In this document: in pieces, positions 14,425-22,846 of the stretch | Position numbering within the stretch: position 1 is the stretch's first letter | Layout of the letters: every line of letters starts with the position of its first letter | Source: Chloroflexus aurantiacus J-10-fl | Lineage (GTDB): Bacteria; Chloroflexota; Chloroflexia; Chloroflexales; Chloroflexaceae | DNA length: 64,000 bases | Direction of reading: 5' to 3' | Assembly: GCF_000018865.1 (NCBI RefSeq) | Contig: NC_010175.1 | Span: forward strand, 62,001-126,000 | The notes under the pieces: model-generated | Told to the model about the DNA's origin: nothing | Databases searched by the model: none | What the model saw: only the letters and a program-made list of their open reading frames with translations | Made by a program: the position numbers and the translations under genes

Positions 14425-14709
14425 TTAATAGCGGCGACCAAAGCCACCACGCGGTGCATTGCGCGGCTTATCTTCGGCCTCATTCACCCGCAAATTGCGA
14501 CCACCAACTTCAAGACCGTCGGTTGCGCGGATGACAGCAGCGACGTTATTTGTTTCGATCTCGACAAAGCCAAAACCACGCGAACGACCGGTGTCGCGAT
14601 CATTGATCACTCGTGCGCTTTGCACTTCACCATGCGGCTCGAAGATCGAACCCAGCTCAGCGTCGCCCACATTCCACGGCAAATTCCCGACGAACAGTTT
14701 CACCAACAT
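14425..14709 (-). CDS. RRM-type RNA-binding protein
   Basis: 94 residues. A single RNA recognition motif has RNP2 LFVGNLPW near residue 5 and RNP1 RGFGFVEIE near 45. A short basic Gly/Arg tail ends RGGFGRRY. It is like the cold-inducible Rbp proteins of cyanobacteria and other bacteria, which bind single-stranded RNA. I chose the ATG at 14709 (MLVKLFVGN) because a GGAG lies 10 nt upstream; the longer in-frame version adds 21 residues with no family match. It has a long untranslated leader and a clear terminator, so it is monocistronic. Confidence 0.93.
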   Translation of the reverse strand: MLVKLFVGNLPWNVGDAELGSIFEPHGEVQSARVINDRDTGRSRGFGFVEIETNNVAAVIRATDGLEVGGRNLRVNEAEDKPRNAPRGGFGRRY

Positions 14710-15020
14710 TGTACACACTCCACAGAGACTTGGTTTGACACACCTGCGTGGCATATCAAAACCGGCTATCACAGAACTCTCGTACTACCGCTGCCGATGG
14801 AAACCCATCGACCAGTCGCTCCGGTGTTCGACAACGTACCTGCTTCGAGCGCTGAAGCGTTGCCGATTGACCTGAGCCTGAGAGTTCTCTGATGCCGGTC
14901 TCGCAGCACACGACGTTGATTGACCTGCTCAGTGTAACACACTTTTCTGAAATTGCAAGAGGGATTCTGTAAGGAAACTTGACGGGTGGCAGGATCGCGT
15001 TACAGAAGCGGGACATCCGC
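14710..15020 (-). promoter_or_regulatory. long candidate leader of the RRM gene
   Basis: About 300 bp (of a 455-bp gene-free stretch) precede the RRM gene without a convincing ORF. On the minus strand the motif CAGGTCAATCAACG (14914-14927) recurs as CAGGTCAATCGGCAACG (14858-14874) and weakly at 14832-14842. Several short self-complementary segments lie between them. Cold-responsive RNA-binding protein genes often have structured leaders, so regulation here is plausible but unproven. Confidence 0.3.
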
Positions 15021-15164
15021 GCCATCCTGCTTTACTCAAGCACAATCCGATCCAACGCAACGCACGAAAGCATAGCTTCCGCGCACCATATGGACAATGC
15101 TTCCGCTTTCTGACATATCAGGGTATACTACAAAAAGAGCACTACAAACCCCAACGGAGGTCGT

Positions 15165-15749
15165 ATGTCGCGTCCGTTCATTCCCATGACCGCCAAGTGG
15201 CGGCAAGAGTTTATCAAGCCGCGAGGACCGGCCAATGTGCCCGCAGTTGGTAGCGAGGCACCCGATTTTACGCTTCCGTATGCCCAATTCCTCAGTGGGC
15301 CGCCGGAAGATCGGGTTGAATACGGTCGAACGATCACGCTGAGCGCGCTGCGTGGACGGCCCGTTGTCCTCAATCTCACCCGCATTGTCAGTGATCGCTT
15401 CTTCTGACCGCACTGCGCGCCGCAACTGGATGCGTTGCGGGAGCACTATGATCTCTTCGTTCAGCGCAATGCGCACCTGCTGGTGGTCAGCAGCACCGAT
15501 CTCGAAATGACCAGCTACGTCGCCGAGGTGTTGCGTGCGCCGTATCCCATTTTGAGTGATCCCGAATGGGGCGTATTTTACCGCTACGGTATGGGATCGG
15601 CGATGGGAGTGCCCTTGCCGGGTGTATTCGTGATCGATGCTGATGGCATCATCCGCTGGAGCTGGGCTGCACCGTTGTCGGTTGTTTTCACTCCACCACG
15701 TCCGGCAGAGCTGGCGGCAGTGCTTGATGCGCTGGCAAGTGAAGGCTGA
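15165..15749 (+). CDS. thioredoxin/peroxiredoxin-fold protein with in-frame UGA at the first active-site Cys (candidate selenoprotein)
   Basis: Read through the UGA at 15405-15407, the gene gives 194 residues. Before it: VGSEAPDFTLPYAQ, the typical AhpC/TSA opening, and RGRPVVLNLTRIVSDRFF. After it: PHCAPQLDALREHYDLF, then LLVVSSTDLEM, APYPILSDPEWGVFYRYG and PGVFVIDADGIIRW, all standard peroxiredoxin-like landmarks in the same frame. The UGA (position 81) falls on the first Cys of the CPHC motif, giving U-P-H-C. A 7-bp hairpin follows at SECIS spacing. GGAGGT precedes the ATG. Sense codons on both sides are undecayed. Alternatives are a TGC-to-TGA mutation or a sequence error; genome-wide Sec machinery cannot be seen here. 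Confidence 0.72.
15405..15440 (+). promoter_or_regulatory. UGA codon plus SECIS-like stem-loop
   Basis: UGA at 15405-15407 is followed by a perfect 7-bp stem CCGCAAC/GTTGCGG at 15420-15426 and 15434-15440, with the 7-nt loop TGGATGC. The loop opens 19 nt after the UGA and has G in its second position. Both agree with the usual description of bacterial SECIS elements (apical loop about 16-37 nt downstream, early loop G). Confidence 0.55.
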
Positions 15750-15806
15750 GGCGGTTTCTCCACCTGCCTCAGCCTATACATGTCACTGTCTAATGCTCAG
15801 AACGTG

Positions 15807-16511
15807 TCACACCCGCTCATACCACGAGAACGACTTAGAAGATCGTTTCAGTCGATACGGCAGTACGACGTGCCGCTCTGTACGATCACCCTTGCTCAGC
15901 TTTTTGGCCGGGTTGTAGACATCGATCTTCTCAAAGCTCAGATTGGGAGCGCAATCGTCTACCACTTGCATCGTCCCATCAAGCGGAAAATTTGTCTCTG
16001 GTCGGGTCAGTGAGACAAACTCCGCAGGCAAGACTTCGTTGTACGCCGGCACACTCAGAACCTGGACAAATCCACCTCTCTTACCAAGGTAGGTAATATG
16101 AAGCAGCGCATCACGCAGCCAATCGCGTTGATCTGAACCTTCCCAGCCCAGACCAATCGCGAAGTCGCCAAACAGATGGACATACTCGCGATAGCCGATT
16201 GTGCGCTGGAAAAAGCCTTCAAAGTCGGGATCGTTTGGTTTAGCTTCACTCCGACTGGGACGGAGCACCCGTTGAAAGACATTCGAGACGACAGCCTGTG
16301 CGGCGGGGCGCAACGCCACCTCCAGGCGGGCAATAGCCGGCCAATGAGAGCGGGCTACGTCTAGCGACTGGGCACGACACAACGCATCAAAAATGGCCAT
16401 CTTTATCGCAAATGGGGTCGGTGCCAGCAATGTCTTCCCGCCGGATGCCGTTGTGAAACTGGGACGCAGCGAGAAGAGTGAGACTGCCTCGTATTCAGCA
16501 ATCAACCACAT
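15807..16511 (-). CDS. cas5: CRISPR-associated Cas5-like protein
   Basis: 234 residues. The N-terminus MWLIAEYEAVSLFSLRPSFT, the glycine stretch GGKTLLAPTPFAIKMAIFDA and the later LGKRGGFVQ fit the RAMP fold of Cas5, which caps the 5' crRNA handle in Cascade. It sits 2 bp after the cas7-like gene. Assignment depends partly on position. No Cas6 is present, so whether this Cas5 also processes crRNA, as in subtype I-C, is open. The 57 bp after the preceding plus-strand gene hold nothing. Confidence 0.72.
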   Translation of the reverse strand: MWLIAEYEAVSLFSLRPSFTTASGGKTLLAPTPFAIKMAIFDALCRAQSLDVARSHWPAIARLEVALRPAAQAVVSNVFQRVLRPSRSEAKPNDPDFEGFFQRTIGYREYVHLFGDFAIGLGWEGSDQRDWLRDALLHITYLGKRGGFVQVLSVPAYNEVLPAEFVSLTRPETNFPLDGTMQVVDDCAPNLSFEKIDVYNPAKKLSKGDRTERHVVLPYRLKRSSKSFSWYERV

Positions 16512-16513
16512 AA

Positions 16514-17503
16514 TTATGCTCCATTCACCGCCGGCAAGGTAAACGGTTCAGCCTCCTGGATAAGTCGGCTCATCTGTTCGGCAAAGGCACCGAGTGAGTC
16601 GAACGAAAACAGCTCAATCGCATCAGGGTGAAGCTGATTCAGACTCTCGGCAACCCGCTGGACATCGCTCACAAAATCGTCTTTCAGTGGCGAGATACAG
16701 GGAGCCGGGATGACATTCGAGCTAACCGTCATCACCCCACTCACATCGAGAATGTGCGGATTTTGGGCCGTGCGCATCGCTCCGGCAGGTTCGATGAAGG
16801 TGTAGAGAATGCTTTCCAGCAAAGCACGTAGACGTTTCCGACGCTGATCCGCATCCACTGCATAGCGTTGGGAAATATCGTTAAAGCCAATCCGCGCCGC
16901 TTCCACCTGCACAACAATCGCATAGACACCCGACGATGCCGGACGATGGAACGGCGTCTGTTTGCCGGCAATCGAACCAGACTCGTCAACTCCGGCACTC
17001 CCCCCACCGCGCTCGCTCTCAAACTTGACATGGAAGTAGGAGTCGGTCTTGACACTGCCCGGTACGCCTACCACCCACCCAAACTCAACCACACTTTTGC
17101 GCGGCAACGACCGATTCCCGGCGGTGATCAGCGCGCCGGCCATATCGGTCACTGCACAACGCTGGAGAATAAGATCAAGTTCACCCGCATTGCTTTTGGC
17201 CGTCTGCAACTGATTGAGGAACTCTTTATCGAGGTCGAGATCATAGTTGATCCGATTGGCATTAAACAGCCGTGCACCCATTGAGAGAGGCAAGTCTGCC
17301 TGCACAGCCAGGCGGTGCAAATGTTCAGACTGAATGTGCTTGAACATATCGCCACTGATCGCATTCACGCTGTGCAGGCGACCATCGGCGAAGACATTGA
17401 CCATGCGCGTTTGAATCTGATTCCCTTCACCACCTTCGTTGTTCAACGAGTGCAGGTTCAAGACGGCGCGAGCAGCAATTGACAGGCTAAACACTGGCTT
17501 CAT
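16514..17503 (-). CDS. cas7: Cas7 backbone protein of the DevR/Cst2/Csa2 type
   Basis: 329 residues. The start MKPVFSLSIAARAVLNLHSL followed by NNEGGEGNQIQTRMV matches the DevR-type Cas7 family opening; a glycine-rich insertion (FESERGGGSAGVD) and a late FSFDSLGAFAEQM follow. Cas7 subunits polymerise along the crRNA in Cascade. I chose the ATG at 17503 with GGAG 8 nt upstream; an alternative ATG 6 bp earlier adds two residues. DevR-type Cas7 is typical of I-A and I-B systems. Confidence 0.88.
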   Translation of the reverse strand: MKPVFSLSIAARAVLNLHSLNNEGGEGNQIQTRMVNVFADGRLHSVNAISGDMFKHIQSEHLHRLAVQADLPLSMGARLFNANRINYDLDLDKEFLNQLQTAKSNAGELDLILQRCAVTDMAGALITAGNRSLPRKSVVEFGWVVGVPGSVKTDSYFHVKFESERGGGSAGVDESGSIAGKQTPFHRPASSGVYAIVVQVEAARIGFNDISQRYAVDADQRRKRLRALLESILYTFIEPAGAMRTAQNPHILDVSGVMTVSSNVIPAPCISPLKDDFVSDVQRVAESLNQLHPDAIELFSFDSLGAFAEQMSRLIQEAEPFTLPAVNGA

Positions 17504-17533
17504 ACACATGTCTCCATTCGTAAATATGCACGA

Positions 17534-19394
17534 CTACTCTGCTTCAGGCGAATTATCATCATCACCATCACTACTGACCGGCTCTGTCACCTCTTCAGCG
17601 TCGCTATCGGGGGTATAGGTTTCATCACGCTGGAAGGTACTGGCATAGCCATACGCCACCAGCAGGCTGGCAATCATCTGTGGATCGCGATATTCATCCA
17701 TCAGAGCCAGCAATTCATCGATATCCTTGATCGAGACATCACTACGCGCCCCGCGCGGCTGGGAATACCCTTGGCGTTCAAGCCGCTCACGCATCCGGGC
17801 GTTTTCGGCATTGTAATCGTGAATAAACTCGCTCAGGGCAGTAATAAACTCGTTGGGATAGGCGGATTTGCGCAGCAATTCCTGACCAAGCCCGTAGCGC
17901 ACCTCATACGACACATCGTAGCGACCTTGATTTCGCTTCAGGTTGCGCCGATGAGCCTCGACGGTTGCCATGCGAATGGCATAGGCCAGGTTGCGAAAGC
18001 CGCGTGATTGGGTAATCTTGCTTAGGGGTGGCGCAATCGAACTCATAATAACCTCCAGATGATGAACGGTAAACTGAGGCGCGAGTTTGTCGCGCTGGAT
18101 CACAAAGCCAGAGTAGGCATCGGTAAATGCCAGCAGCGCCGTCAATTCGTTGGTCGAAAGAAAATCGCGGTAGAGACGGAGCAATTCATAGTCCTCGCCA
18201 CGCTTCTCATCGAGATTACGAACGATGCGTATATGCTCATCGATCATGTTCTGATAGAGCTGAATATCCTGCCGAACACGTGGCTGCACCCAGGCCGGTA
18301 AGCCAATGCGGGCAATATTCATGACTGCCGCCGACTGGCCGAGGTTCTTGTAATAGGCACTATCGAGGCCGTAGACCAACCTGTTCACGCCTTGATGACT
18401 GCCAAAAATCTGGGTAAGGAGGCGCTCACTCTGCGTAACTGCGGCATAATCCAGTACTGCTCTGGTATAACGCAGCGCAGCCAGCACATCGAGTTGGATC
18501 GCGCCACCTGAGCCGACCATCAAACGGCGAAATTCCTCGCGGATGCCGCGATGATCATGCCAGTCCAGTTGGTTGGGCGCTAACACATAAATCTTGCGAT
18601 CTTTGCTATCCCTGATCAGACGGGTAAATCCGGCCCACCGCAACCCAACCCATTTCAGGTACTCGGTGAGCCAGAAATTGCTCAGGTTCCCCGGTTTGGC
18701 GAAGATCGCCTTACCGTTGGCCGTACCTTTGCCCTGGGTAGGATTGATCACCTGTGAAGCACTGAGCTGCTTTGTATGGTGTAGCCCGTGCTGCTTACAA
18801 ACCGCAGCCCAATGCTTTTCAGCACCTTCCTGATCATTGGGCAACGTACTGGCATAGATCAGCACTGTCTCCAGCAAAGCCGGAAACGCAACCCGTCCCT
18901 GAAACCACTCTGCGGCAGCACTATTGGCAGCCTGCAATGCTGTCGGGTTGATTGCCCGAAAGAGTTCCCAGTCGGGATGCGGTTCAACCGGCGGATGAAG
19001 CTGCGGCTGCTGACCACCAACACTTTTACGCCACGTCCAGTAGGTTTCGTTGTCGGCTTTGGCCTGTTCGTAATCTTCAACCACACCCACCATTGCCGCT
19101 ACATCGGCAAGGGCAAGGCGCGTGCCTTTGATCAACTTTTGTTGTGTTTTGCGATCAACAGTGACTAAAAGAAAAGCGCCGGTAAAAAAACTGGCAGTTT
19201 TTTACCCAATCTTCGCGTAAGGGTGGGTCACAGATAACTGCAAAATGTGATCCGTGGTCTGCAATTGTTACCCGTGCCCGGCTGTCGGCAATCCCATCGA
19301 GAACGTAAGCCAATCCAAACGCAACCAGGTTATCGGCAAAGGTACCGGTGCGCTTTTCAACGTAATACTTACTGCGATAGATTGACGCATTCAT
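17534..19394 (-). CDS. cas8: Cas8-like large subunit, split by a frameshift at a seven-T run
   Basis: Two frames belong together. The 5' frame opens MNASIYRSKYYVEKRTGTFA at 19394 and runs to CQFFYRRFSFSHC, ending at 19155. The 3' frame (to 17534) contains IKGTRLALADVAAMVGVVED and more than 500 further residues but has no ATG at its head, only a TTG at 19135. Removing one T from the run of seven (TTTTTTT on the coding strand, 19192-19198 region) joins them into about 619 residues reading KNCQFFTGAFLLVTVDRKTQ. The position between cas3 and cas7 marks it as the Cascade large subunit. The C-terminus is very acidic. Subtype is not assignable by eye. Confidence 0.68.
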
Positions 19395-19408
19395 AGATAC
19401 TCCACTGC

Positions 19409-21814
19409 TCAGGGAAGCGTTTGCCCGGCGCCCATCTCCGTGCCCCGCTGATCGGCCCGTCGTAAGGCACGAGCCAGTAATGTGTAGGCAATCCAACCGT
19501 AGCGGCTGGTTGGCTTGATCAGCAATTCGGCAAATTGCTGGTGATGATGACTATTCACCCATAAGTCGTTGATATTGAGAGAATAGTTTACCTCTTCTGG
19601 CAGGAATTGTAGCGTATTTTGAATCAGATTGCCTGCCTCTGACACCAACGAAAATGCCTGACAATCCTGAACGAAGGGGGCATGATGACGGGCAATCGCA
19701 GTCAGTATTGCCTGTACCAATTCCTTCTCATGAGATATGTTGAACGCACCGGCCAATATCTGTGCAACTGCCAGTGCTCCTTCCGCGGCATGGCGTGGTC
19801 GAGGCGTGCTACGTGACACCTCTCGCTCGGCCTGGCGATGGGTGGGATTTTGGAAATCAAACGTGGTATGGGCCAGCGCAATCGTTTTGGCAACCGGCTG
19901 ACCAATGGCTTGCTGATAGGCATGCGCCCACTGCTGCCAGCCCTTAGACAGTTTGCCAACATCGTGGAACAGGCATGCCAGCCACGCAGCGCGCAGCACA
20001 CTGCCAGGCGACCACCCGGCAGCACATTCAAGTGCAGATGCGGCAAAGCGGAGTTCCGGGAGCACCAGTTCCTGAAATGCGTCAAGCACGCGCTGGATAT
20101 GCTCGGCATAGGTCTCAACGTACAGGCTTGAGCGAGGCCGGTCGATCAATGGCCTGGCTGGCGGCAACGTCGAGATAAACGGTAGATTACCGGTTTCCGG
20201 TGAAAAGCCTTCGTGCGCCGAGTAGCCGGCTAATGCCGGGTGAACAACAATAATCGCACTTTGCGCCAGTTCCTTGCTATCGTGAACGTCAACCCAACGG
20301 TACAGCGGGCGATTACTCTCTGCCTGATCGCCGGCATCGCTTTCATCGAGCCGGCGCACGCGCCAGGGAGCATCAGTTGGACGCTGCAACCAATCTTTTC
20401 CCATACTCCGCAACGAATAGAGCGGGATATTCAGACCAACCGCATCGTAGGGCGAAGCCAGAAGCTGATCGGGATCGGGATGGATCAGTACCAGGCGGCT
20501 ATCGACATCGCGCACCAGCAGGCGTGACGCTCCCGCACGCTGTCCCTCAAGACAACCCTGAATAGACGCGCGTCGATTGTGACGGTCAGCCTGAATACCT
20601 GCAATAATGTTTTGGTCGCGAGCAGCACTCACGGCATTGACCAGCTCCTGTTCGTGGTCGAAGTCAAACACTGCGCCCTGTCGTTCCTTCAGCCACGCCA
20701 GAGTCGCATCCATCTCGTGCTTGAGGATCTCGTCTGGTTTGAACGCATAAGGGACATATGTTTCAACCGGATACACGATAACTGTGCCGGTATCACCAGG
20801 ATAGCGCGCACAACGTCCGGCACGCTGAATGAGGCTGGCCGGGGGCGCCAGTTCGGTATGCAGCACCTCTACCGAAATATCAACCCCTACTTCAACGACC
20901 TGAGTGGCCACAACGATCAGATTGGCCTGCTGGCGCTGGGAGGACACACCAAGCCGACTCCGCAACTTTGCCTCGATCTGACGACGGTCATCGGGTAAGA
21001 ACTGACTATGGAGGAGAAGGACCTCAGTTTCCGGCGGCGCCTGCTGTTTCAGTTCAGCATAGACCTCGCGCGCCCGCCGGACCGTGTTGCAAATCACCAG
21101 CGAAGCGTGCTGATGATGGGCAAGCACTGCCGCAGCCTGCAACGGCTGATCGGCCACCTGCCACACCCGCTGCCGGGCCGGTTGACCACCACGGGTGTTA
21201 ATCGCTGCAATCTCTGCCGCCGACAGCGTAACCACCTGTGCCGGCTGCAACAACGTCGCCAGTGATTGCAACATTGCACTGCTAAACGTCGCCGTCATCA
21301 GCATAAACGGGGCCAGGCCATGAAGCTGCCGCAGGACGTGGAGGATTGTGGGTAATGCTGCATCAGGATCAAACAAATGAAACTCATCAAAGACCAGATA
21401 CGCACCAGCAAGCGCGCCTGCATTAACATTTGCGAGGCGATACGGCAAACTGTACGGCATCATCAGATAGCTACTGAGAAACTGATCCACGGTACAGAAG
21501 ATAAGATCGCCTTCAAAGCGACGATCTTCCGGCTGCTCACCGGTTTGAATACGCACATCGAGCTGGCGTCCGTGCAGGCGCTGATAGCGCGCAGCAAGCT
21601 CGCGATATTCAGCATAAAACTGATTCGCCAGCACCCGCATCGGCGTGACATAGAGACATTTGCGGGGCGTGGTGTCTGGTCGATCAAAAAATCCCTCAAT
21701 AAACGGCACCAATGCCGCCCGCGTCTTGCCGGCTCCGGTTGGCGCCTGAAGCACAACATTCTCTCCGGCAAGAATGATATCCTTCACCCGCTGCTGGTAC
21801 GGATAGAGTTGCAT
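19409..21814 (-). CDS. cas3: Cas3 helicase-nuclease with C-terminal HD domain
   Basis: 801 residues. SF2 helicase motifs come first: Walker A APTGAGKT near residue 25, DEFH box VFDEFHLFDPD, motif III LMTATFSS and motif VI QRAGRCARYPG. The HD nuclease is C-terminal: CLFHDVGKLSKGW near residue 620, then RHHAP. The usual Cas3 order is HD then helicase; helicase-HD is the reversed arrangement. It unwinds and degrades target DNA recruited by Cascade. GGAGGGTAAGAT precedes the ATG. The gap to the WYL gene is 3 bp and to cas8 14 bp, so this is one operon. Confidence 0.93.
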   Translation of the reverse strand: MQLYPYQQRVKDIILAGENVVLQAPTGAGKTRAALVPFIEGFFDRPDTTPRKCLYVTPMRVLANQFYAEYRELAARYQRLHGRQLDVRIQTGEQPEDRRFEGDLIFCTVDQFLSSYLMMPYSLPYRLANVNAGALAGAYLVFDEFHLFDPDAALPTILHVLRQLHGLAPFMLMTATFSSAMLQSLATLLQPAQVVTLSAAEIAAINTRGGQPARQRVWQVADQPLQAAAVLAHHQHASLVICNTVRRAREVYAELKQQAPPETEVLLLHSQFLPDDRRQIEAKLRSRLGVSSQRQQANLIVVATQVVEVGVDISVEVLHTELAPPASLIQRAGRCARYPGDTGTVIVYPVETYVPYAFKPDEILKHEMDATLAWLKERQGAVFDFDHEQELVNAVSAARDQNIIAGIQADRHNRRASIQGCLEGQRAGASRLLVRDVDSRLVLIHPDPDQLLASPYDAVGLNIPLYSLRSMGKDWLQRPTDAPWRVRRLDESDAGDQAESNRPLYRWVDVHDSKELAQSAIIVVHPALAGYSAHEGFSPETGNLPFISTLPPARPLIDRPRSSLYVETYAEHIQRVLDAFQELVLPELRFAASALECAAGWSPGSVLRAAWLACLFHDVGKLSKGWQQWAHAYQQAIGQPVAKTIALAHTTFDFQNPTHRQAEREVSRSTPRPRHAAEGALAVAQILAGAFNISHEKELVQAILTAIARHHAPFVQDCQAFSLVSEAGNLIQNTLQFLPEEVNYSLNINDLWVNSHHHQQFAELLIKPTSRYGWIAYTLLARALRRADQRGTEMGAGQTLP

Positions 21815-21817
21815 ATC

Positions 21818-22846
21818 TTACCCTCCAAAGAAATCGTGTAGCGTCGTCGAGCCGGTCGGTGTCGGTACCGAGGAAACGTGCCAGCCATACCGTTCGGCCA
21901 ACGCTCGCGCTTCTCCCATAAGCGTCTCGCGAAACTCCAGCGGCTCAAGCACCTCAACGCCAGCCCCCCAACCACGAACCCAGGGCAACATCTCGCGCCA
22001 ATCGGTGACCTGCGCCTGCCACTCACAACCACCGTCGTCAAGCAGAGTGATTTGTTGCGACGGATGCCAGATTGTTTCCTGGACTCGTCGCGTTACCTCG
22101 CCGGGCATAAAGCGCAACCTGACCGTCACCGGCTCCTCATCACCCAACCAGATTCCCCAGGTATGCCGCAACAGTTGCTGTTCATCAAAATCATCGGGAA
22201 TATCGAAGGTCTCCAGGGTTGTCACAGCATCTTCAATGCGTTCCAGCTTAAACGGAACAATATCGCGGGCAATATCACTATACGCAACCACGTACACACT
22301 ATCGCTCCAAAGGGCAGGCTCGATCAGATACGGGCAAATGGTGTGAATCAGTGGTCGGCGGGCGCGCAGTGCCCGATATGTGATTCGCACCTTGCGCTGA
22401 TTGAGCCACGCCATAGTGATTTGCTCAAGAATACTTAACCGCTGCGGCTGCTTTTGCTGCTTCAGCACACTGGTCGAGAGCTGCAATAATCGTTCAGTCA
22501 TCGGCTGCTGAAGACAGGCGGCCAGCTTTTCTACTGCCTGCACAACATGAACATTCGCGAATCGGGTCTGACGCAACAAACGTCGCGCCGGTAAGTAGAG
22601 AAAGAGGGCTTCGTGGGGATTAAGCCGCACCTCAGACACCAGACGACTGCGGTCGATGCGATAGCGCCCTGGCGACTCCTCAACGAACGGGTATTCTTGT
22701 TCCAGAGCAATCCGATCCCGGTACGCAGTCGTCCGATCAATCTCCAGCCGTTCGGCAATTTCGGCATCGCTAAAAGCCCGCTGAACATACAATCGTTTCA
22801 TTTCACTCAGTCGTTCAGCCCGTGAAAGCCCGCGACCTTTTCCCAT
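21818..22846 (-). CDS. WYL-domain transcriptional regulator at the head of the cas operon
   Basis: 342 residues. The N-terminal helix-turn-helix (RLYVQRAFSDAEIAERLEI then DRTTAYRDRIAL) is DeoR-like, followed by the WYL domain (KVRITYRALRARRPLIHTIC, PYLIEPALWSDSVYVVAY) and a WCX-like C-terminus. WYL proteins bind nucleic-acid or nucleotide ligands and often control CRISPR and other defence loci. Being the first gene of the operon, it probably autoregulates the cas genes. Confidence 0.93.
   Translation of the reverse strand: MGKGRGLSRAERLSEMKRLYVQRAFSDAEIAERLEIDRTTAYRDRIALEQEYPFVEESPGRYRIDRSRLVSEVRLNPHEALFLYLPARRLLRQTRFANVHVVQAVEKLAACLQQPMTERLLQLSTSVLKQQKQPQRLSILEQITMAWLNQRKVRITYRALRARRPLIHTICPYLIEPALWSDSVYVVAYSDIARDIVPFKLERIEDAVTTLETFDIPDDFDEQQLLRHTWGIWLGDEEPVTVRLRFMPGEVTRRVQETIWHPSQQITLLDDGGCEWQAQVTDWREMLPWVRGWGAGVEVLEPLEFRETLMGEARALAERYGWHVSSVPTPTGSTTLHDFFGG

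What the first reader, a model, noticed from the sequence alone, without database searches (positions are those of the whole stretch)
15405..15440. In-frame UGA at the first Cys of a CPHC redox motif with a SECIS-like hairpin
The frame from 15165 to 15749 encodes a complete thioredoxin/peroxiredoxin-fold protein except that UGA replaces the first active-site Cys (UPHC). Both flanks are intact in the same frame. A perfect 7-bp stem with a 7-nt loop (G at position 2) opens 19 nt after the UGA, matching bacterial SECIS geometry. Sec at the first position of UxxC is the classic selenoprotein substitution. An annotation pipeline would truncate this gene to 80 residues.
Basis: partly seen in the sequence, partly recalled or inferred. 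Interest (0 to 1): 0.88.

Follow-up and report, generated by a model that had tools for sequence, protein, structure and literature searches.

The report
Real selenoprotein, misread as truncated gene
The stop codon in this bacterial redox gene is almost certainly read as the rare amino acid selenocysteine; this is a genuine member of a known kind of selenium protein, and neighbouring species show it being replaced by an ordinary cysteine copy.

Summary
Window 15165-15749 (+) is one 194-codon frame broken only by TGA at 15405-15407, encoding an AhpC/TSA (peroxiredoxin-fold) protein with motif U81-P-H-C84. One error: the stem starts 12 nt after the UGA; the loop starts at 19 nt. Alone, the hairpin is weak evidence. 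The comparative evidence is decisive. Of 28 family genomes with a close copy, 27 have TGA at exactly this codon and one has only TGC. Codons 82-93 are synonymously frozen. The genome has SelA, SelB, SelD (itself with TGA) and tRNA-Sec. The TGC-only genome lacks SelA, SelB and SelD over cut-off, and both TGC copies lack the hairpin. Purifying selection continues past the TGA. Best reading: a UxxC Prx-like thiol:disulfide oxidoreductase, a known selenoprotein kind, possibly already counted among three Chloroflexi selenoproteins by Zhang 2006. The fresh part: one syntenic locus with Sec-only, Cys+Sec tandem and Cys-only states, read as a Sec-to-Cys replacement caught with its intermediate, beside loss of Sec genes.

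The parts
15165..15749 (+). Selenoprotein gene: UxxC Prx-like (AhpC/TSA-fold) redox protein, 194 aa with TGA read as Sec
   Evidence: frame; Pfam AhpC-TSA 83.6 bits; peroxiredoxin fold, mean pLDDT 90.3, best Z 21.5
15156..15160 (+). Probable ribosome-binding site GGAGG, 4 nt before ATG
   Evidence: sequence, read by eye; GGAGG-like stretches also precede several relatives
15405..15407 (+). In-frame TGA, Sec codon (U81)
   Evidence: TGA at the same codon in 27 close copies and TGC in the other 2 of 29
15414..15416 (+). TGC, Cys84, partner of U81 in the UPHC motif
   Evidence: invariant column of 18 rows; U81 and C84 are the only Cys/Sec in 24 of 28 family proteins
15420..15440 (+). SECIS hairpin: arms 15420-15426 and 15434-15440, loop 15427-15433 (GG at loop positions 2-3)
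   Evidence: pair counts; synonymous freeze

Best explanation
The gene is a true selenoprotein gene. Ribosomes read UGA 15405-15407 as selenocysteine because SelB with Sec-tRNA-Sec is recruited by the hairpin 12 nt downstream (components shown; insertion inferred). The product is a single-domain protein, without an evident signal peptide by eye, on a peroxiredoxin backbone whose active site is thioredoxin-like: Sec81 sits where AhpE has the Thr of its TxxC, Cys84 where AhpE has its Cys, and Pro152 where AhpE has an Arg. It most likely works as a thiol:disulfide (selenenylsulfide) oxidoreductase cycling Sec81-Cys84, rather than as a classical peroxidase (inferred).
For: Machinery: SelA 7.1e-141, SelB 342.6 bits with neighbours against cut-off 242.25, SelD 367.9 bits with 1 TGA, tRNA-Sec 70.7 bits and ARAGORN tRNA-SeC. 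Conservation: of 41 family genomes, 28 have a close copy; 27 have TGA at this codon and G230 has only TGC; G086 has both. SelA is present in 26 of 27 TGA genomes against 8 of 14 others (Fisher p 0.004); SelB over cut-off in 23 of 27 against 6 of 14 (p 0.010) (kinship ignored). RNA: synonymous diversity in codons 82-93 is 0.47 of expectation against 0.88 elsewhere, 0 of 100,000 permutations as low; G000 against G126 has no synonymous change in codons 82-93 and 43.5 in 94-190. The hairpin with bulge pairs in 95.7% of cells, with one compensatory GC/CG pair. Both Cys copies lack the hairpin. dN/dS downstream of the TGA is 0.02-0.10 in 7 of 7 pairs. Active site: AhpE alignment; 9 of 10 distant UxxC/CxxC relatives have Pro at 152.
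Against: No protein or selenium measurement. The hairpin alone is near chance, MFE folds of single sequences often differ from it, Rfam gives no match, and covariation rests on one pair (the count of such pairs is reached by 480 of 500 shuffles). The stretch 82-93 was chosen after seeing the alignment; the freeze also reaches codons 78-80, before the TGA. TGA genome G400 has no SelA, no SelB over cut-off and no tRNA-Sec hit; G375 and G238 have no SelB over cut-off; G411's SelB match is cut at a contig end; G086 has no SelD over cut-off; G413 has no tRNA-Sec hit. All are multi-contig assemblies, so gaps are likely but not shown. Among Thr/Ser-type relatives only 2 of 4 align an Arg at 152. The enzyme activity is inference from motif and fold.
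Confidence: 0.96

Rival explanations
1. Pseudogene or sequencing error: TGA is a nonsense mutation or a misread TGC/TGT.
For: A single base change at the third codon position would give Cys, the residue of the two Cys-type copies.
Against: Same TGA in 26 further genomes; dN/dS 0.02-0.10 after the TGA; frozen codons just after it. Of the 27 TGA copies only G409's is frameshifted, in an assembly of 780 contigs.
Confidence: 0.01
2. UGA is read, but not as Sec: readthrough or suppression inserting Trp or Cys, or an internal restart at TTG 15435 making a 104-aa second protein.
For: An ORF 15435-15749 from TTG exists mechanically.
Against: The full Sec machinery is present, and SelA/SelB go with the TGA copies. 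The Cys form, not Trp, replaces UGA. The Pfam domain spans the TGA. A restart would not conserve the UGA.
Confidence: 0.03
3. It is a selenoprotein, but works as a peroxiredoxin-type peroxidase rather than a thiol:disulfide oxidoreductase (a sub-question of the main reading, so its odds do not add to those above).
For: Peroxiredoxin fold; matches include AhpE, Prx1 and Bcp; Cys84 lies at AhpE's Cys.
Against: Sec stands at AhpE's Thr and Pro at its Arg in the alignment; P-L-P is kept in 28 of 28 family proteins.
Confidence: 0.25

Closest known systems
Prx-like thiol:disulfide oxidoreductase selenoproteins (PF00578, UxxC/UxxU; tables in PMC1794560, PMC9312934, PMC13188914, passages seen)
   Same: AhpC/TSA domain over its Pfam cut-off, UxxC motif, hairpin after the UGA, Sec and Cys forms
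   Different: Not compared in sequence with the reference member of those tables. This subfamily has its own TRIVSDRFFUPxC stretch, with a 4-residue insert before the motif against 5 distant relatives. Copies above 60% identity were found only in genomes of this family, plus one record titled Gracilibacteria (one search finds close relatives only)
SelL-related redox proteins (NCBIfam NF040769)
   Same: Best NCBIfam match, best stretch residues 79-146
   Different: 37.5 bits against a cut-off of 120
AhpE / 2-Cys peroxiredoxins
   Same: Fold (Z about 21) and position of Cys84
   Different: AhpE's Thr replaced by Sec and its Arg position occupied by Pro
ResA-type thiol:disulfide oxidoreductases (NF002854)
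   Same: Matches residues 27-164; CxxC-type motif (the ResA motif is recalled)
   Different: 29.5 bits against cut-off 170; no membrane anchor seen by eye

Membership tests
Bacterial selenoprotein gene | In-frame UGA inside an otherwise intact, conserved coding sequence | tested here: met
Bacterial selenoprotein gene | SECIS hairpin just downstream with G in a small apical loop | tested here: met
   12 nt to stem, 19 nt to loop, GG in loop; conserved in relatives; weak on the single sequence; bSECISearch was not run
Bacterial selenoprotein gene | SelA, SelB, SelC (tRNA-Sec) and SelD encoded in the genome | tested here: met
Bacterial selenoprotein gene | Homologues with Cys at the UGA column | tested here: met
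   G086_C and G230_C have TGC; distant L059, L064, L066 have Cys
Bacterial selenoprotein gene | Selenium in the full-length protein | not testable with these tools
   needs 75Se labelling or mass spectrometry
Prx-like thiol:disulfide oxidoreductase (UxxC) | AhpC-TSA domain (PF00578) | tested here: met
   83.6 bits, cut-off 26; 18 of 18 members of A1 match at E <= 0.001
Prx-like thiol:disulfide oxidoreductase (UxxC) | UxxC or UxxU motif | tested here: met
   U81-P-H-C84
Prx-like thiol:disulfide oxidoreductase (UxxC) | Direct sequence relation to the published members | not tested
   accession WP_010940744.1 seen in tables of PMC9312934 and PMC13188914; its sequence was not fetched
SelL-related redox protein (NF040769) | Score above the curated cut-off | tested here: not met
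   37.5 against 120 bits
Classical peroxiredoxin | Peroxiredoxin fold | tested here: met
Classical peroxiredoxin | TxxC active-site Thr and catalytic Arg | tested here: not met
   Sec at AhpE's Thr, Pro at its Arg (that these residues are catalytic is recalled); P-L-P in 28 of 28 family proteins

The most novel reading that the evidence does not exclude
At one syntenic locus, beside the same divergent rhodanese/MBL gene, Chloroflexus species show the steps of a Sec-to-Cys replacement: Sec copy alone (L024, L025), Cys and Sec copies in tandem (G086/L027), Cys copy alone (G230/L049), the last in a one-contig genome without SelA, SelB or SelD over cut-off that still holds a tRNA-Sec hit. The replacement went by tandem duplication, not by a point change in place.
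Probability: 0.6. Interest if true: 0.5.

Novelty: new member of a known kind. Interest (0 to 1): 0.42.

Why it matters
It restores a full-length gene that a standard reading would cut to 80 residues, and adds a well-supported UxxC selenoprotein subfamily conserved across a phototroph family. Sec-only, tandem and Cys-only states at one locus would let one study how an organism leaves selenium dependence. Zhang 2006 (PMC1794560; table passages and section 9 seen) counted 15 Sec-to-Cys events in four families, none in the Prx-like oxidoreductases; a 2026 review (PMC13188914, passages) calls such changes rare, with documented cases mainly in FdhA and SelD.

Tried and rejected
Hairpin as stand-alone proof: rejected, near chance. 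A 7-bp stem as the family-wide structure: its top pair fails in 16 of 23 rows, and the bulged form fits better. Rfam scan of 14700-16000: no match at E <= 1. Promoter/terminator scan of 14800-15900: none found. Conserved operon partner: none seen in the two loci whose ORFs I listed, L030 and L024. A selenocysteine formate-dehydrogenase type gene in this genome: 6 molybdopterin matches, none with a stop. Papers: 9 searches. Those pairing Chloroflexus or Chloroflexi with selenium terms listed no paper whose title or shown abstract describes this gene; one search showed 15 of 67 papers. One search returned unrelated papers. In PMC5029168, PMC9312934, PMC2398784 and PMC13188914 the word Chloroflex does not occur in the main text. 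Supplements could not be opened, so an earlier listing of this gene is not excluded.

Full report
What is there. Window 15165-15749 (+) is a single frame from ATG to TGA, interrupted once, at 15405-15407. A conventional reading stops at 80 residues. Read through, the 194-residue product matches Pfam AhpC-TSA over residues 28-165 (83.6 bits against a cut-off of 26) and Redoxin (56.5 against 26.6), so the TGA lies inside one domain. The residue is the first position of U-P-H-C. The hairpin is as described, except that the stem starts 12 nt after the UGA and the loop 19 nt after.

Source. Named relatives from genome contigs include Chloroflexus islandicus, Viridilinea and Oscillochloris, which agrees.

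Machinery. SelA (7.1e-141), SelB (342.6 bits over two stretches of one frame, cut-off 242.25), SelD (6.7e-110, with its own TGA) and tRNA-Sec (70.7 bits; ARAGORN tRNA-SeC with anticodon TCA) are all present. Other likely selenoproteins of this genome: SelD (L021; fold) and a DsbG-like protein with a TGA, which I read by eye as FLUTVC in L088. A molybdopterin search found 6 matches without stops. Zhang 2006 (PMC1794560; passages, section 9) counts 3 families and 3 selenoproteins in Chloroflexi. SelD, DsbG-like and the present gene would make three, so this gene may already be counted there as a Prx-like thiol:disulfide oxidoreductase; that is inference, as supplements could not be opened. PMC9312934 (passages) lists a DsbG-like accession annotated only in truncated form; no call ties that accession to this genome.

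Conservation of the UGA. Of 41 genomes of the family, 28 hold a close copy. In 27 it has TGA at exactly this codon; G230 has only a TGC copy, and G086 has a TGC copy beside its TGA copy. The other 13 gave only weak matches or none. One TGA copy (G409) is frameshifted further on. G400 also has a second, partial TGA-bearing match (residues 1-100) that I did not read.

Machinery goes with the TGA. SelA is present in 26 of 27 TGA genomes and 8 of 14 others (Fisher p 0.004); SelB over cut-off in 23 of 27 and 6 of 14 (p 0.010). These tests ignore kinship. tRNA-Sec at E <= 1e-9 is found in 25 of 27 TGA genomes. Exceptions: G400 lacks SelA, SelB over cut-off and a tRNA-Sec hit, but has SelD with TGA; G375 and G238 have SelA, SelD and tRNA-Sec but no SelB over cut-off; G411's SelB match (239.3 bits) is cut by a contig end; G413 has no tRNA-Sec hit; G086 has no SelD over cut-off (SelD was searched in 12 of the 41). 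All six are multi-contig assemblies. G230, a one-contig genome, has no SelA match, no SelB and no SelD over cut-off, but keeps a tRNA-Sec hit of 70.9 bits.

RNA constraint. On 26 TGA genes (G409 left out), synonymous codon diversity in codons 82-93 is 0.47 of expectation against 0.88 elsewhere; 0 of 100,000 permutations were as low. The stretch was chosen after seeing the alignment, and the freeze reaches back to codons 78-80. Codons CCG86 and CTG88 are the same in 26 of 26. For G000 and G126, codons 82-93 show no synonymous difference while codons 94-190 show 43.5. Structure on 23 distinct rows: the 7-bp stem of the window pairs in 85.1% of cells and fails at its top pair in 16 of 23. A 5-bp stem, 2-nt 3' bulge, 2 inner pairs and 5-nt UGGAN loop pairs in 95.7% (0 of 500 shuffles as high), with one pair switching GC to CG in 7 rows, and is what RNAalifold picks. 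In the 8 genomes with the switch, codon 87 reads His for Gln and codon 90 Gly for Ala, so the RNA pair is kept across two amino-acid changes; His87 also occurs without the switch in the two Cys copies, so this is a hint only. In Chloroflexus the inner pair is A-C and the continuous 7-bp form is available instead. The two Cys copies lack CCGCA...UGCGG.

Against over-reading: as a single sequence the hairpin is not significant (7 of 179 positions; 312 of 5000 draws), its own MFE fold differs, and covariation rests on a single pair.

Selection on the protein. In 7 species pairs, dN/dS is 0.02-0.10 downstream of the TGA and 0.02-0.23 upstream. A pseudogene would not show this.

Fold and active site. 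AlphaFold2 on an 18-row alignment (12 Sec-type and 1 Cys-type family members, 5 distant relatives; TGA read as Cys) gives mean pLDDT 90.3, pTM 0.88. Nearest structures are peroxiredoxins: Foldseek 6j13 2.2e-12; VIA-align Z 21.5, rmsd 1.9, 157 residues. In the phmmer alignment with AhpE, residue 81 falls on a Thr, Cys84 on a Cys and P152 on an Arg (that these are AhpE's catalytic residues is recalled). P-L-P is kept in 28 of 28 family proteins. Of 15 distant loci, 10 have U or C at 81 with C at 84, and 9 of these have Pro at 152 (the tenth, L062, did not align there). Of 4 Thr/Ser types, 2 have Arg; L067 aligns a Pro and L083 a Met, each with an Arg 2 to 4 residues on. The fifteenth, L038, is misaligned at the motif and has Arg. 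U81 and C84 are the only Cys/Sec in 24 of 28 family proteins; the other 4 have one more. This fits a thioredoxin-like Sec-Cys pair on a peroxiredoxin backbone; the activity is inferred.

Wider relatives. Among the same 15 distant loci (top-ranked matches only), 7 have TGA at the same column with UxxC (L057, L060, L061, L062, L063, L065, L082). A stem of at least 5 bp can be drawn after each, not tested against chance. Their Sec machinery was not checked. Five of the seven were scanned against NCBIfam, all below the cut-offs shown.

Sec-to-Cys change. A tree without column 81 places the two Cys copies together (100/100) inside a Chloroflexus set (100/99) and, less firmly (88/84), among its Sec copies; the other 20 rows are all Sec (the root is assumed to lie outside Chloroflexus). 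Synteny: the divergent 394-aa rhodanese/MBL gene lies beside the Sec copy in L024 and L025, beside the Cys-Sec tandem in L027 and beside the lone Cys copy in L049 (93-94% identical). Three other Chloroflexus loci with a Sec copy (L026, L039 of the window's genome, L040) gave no match to that neighbour within the DNA held. I read this as tandem duplication, Cys conversion of one copy, then loss of the Sec copy with loss of Sec genes. The order is inferred, and two genomes with a Cys copy are a small sample.

Verdict. Real selenoprotein gene, correctly spotted; known kind, new or quietly listed member; the evolutionary series at the locus is the most interesting part.

Noticed in passing
L024 1064-3076, L027 352-3082, L049 117-2094: Same divergent rhodanese/MBL neighbour beside Sec-only, Cys+Sec tandem and Cys-only forms of the gene: a Sec-to-Cys replacement series.
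   Followed up: yes
G230 C1:4496440-4496532: A tRNA-Sec hit kept in a one-contig genome without SelA, SelB or SelD over cut-off; G353 has a weaker tRNA-Sec hit without SelA.
   Followed up: partly
L088 1558-1560 (G000 C1:3577169-3577666): DsbG-like (Thioredoxin_4) gene of the same genome with in-frame TGA, read by eye as a UTVC motif, and a possible hairpin after it.
   Followed up: partly
L057, L060, L061, L062, L063, L065, L082: Distant AhpC/TSA-type genes in other Chloroflexota with TGA at the first position of UxxC; the five scanned (not L060, L082) fall below the NCBIfam cut-offs shown.
   Followed up: partly
window 16514-22846 (-): CRISPR-associated genes next door: DevR/Csa2 (16514-17509), Cas3 (19409-21814) and a WYL-domain protein (21818-22846).
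   Followed up: no
L037 / G409 C617: A 5,558-base contig whose record title says Gracilibacteria; a contig of the same length and match position sits in a genome that the genome search places in the window's family, so the title is probably wrong.
   Followed up: no
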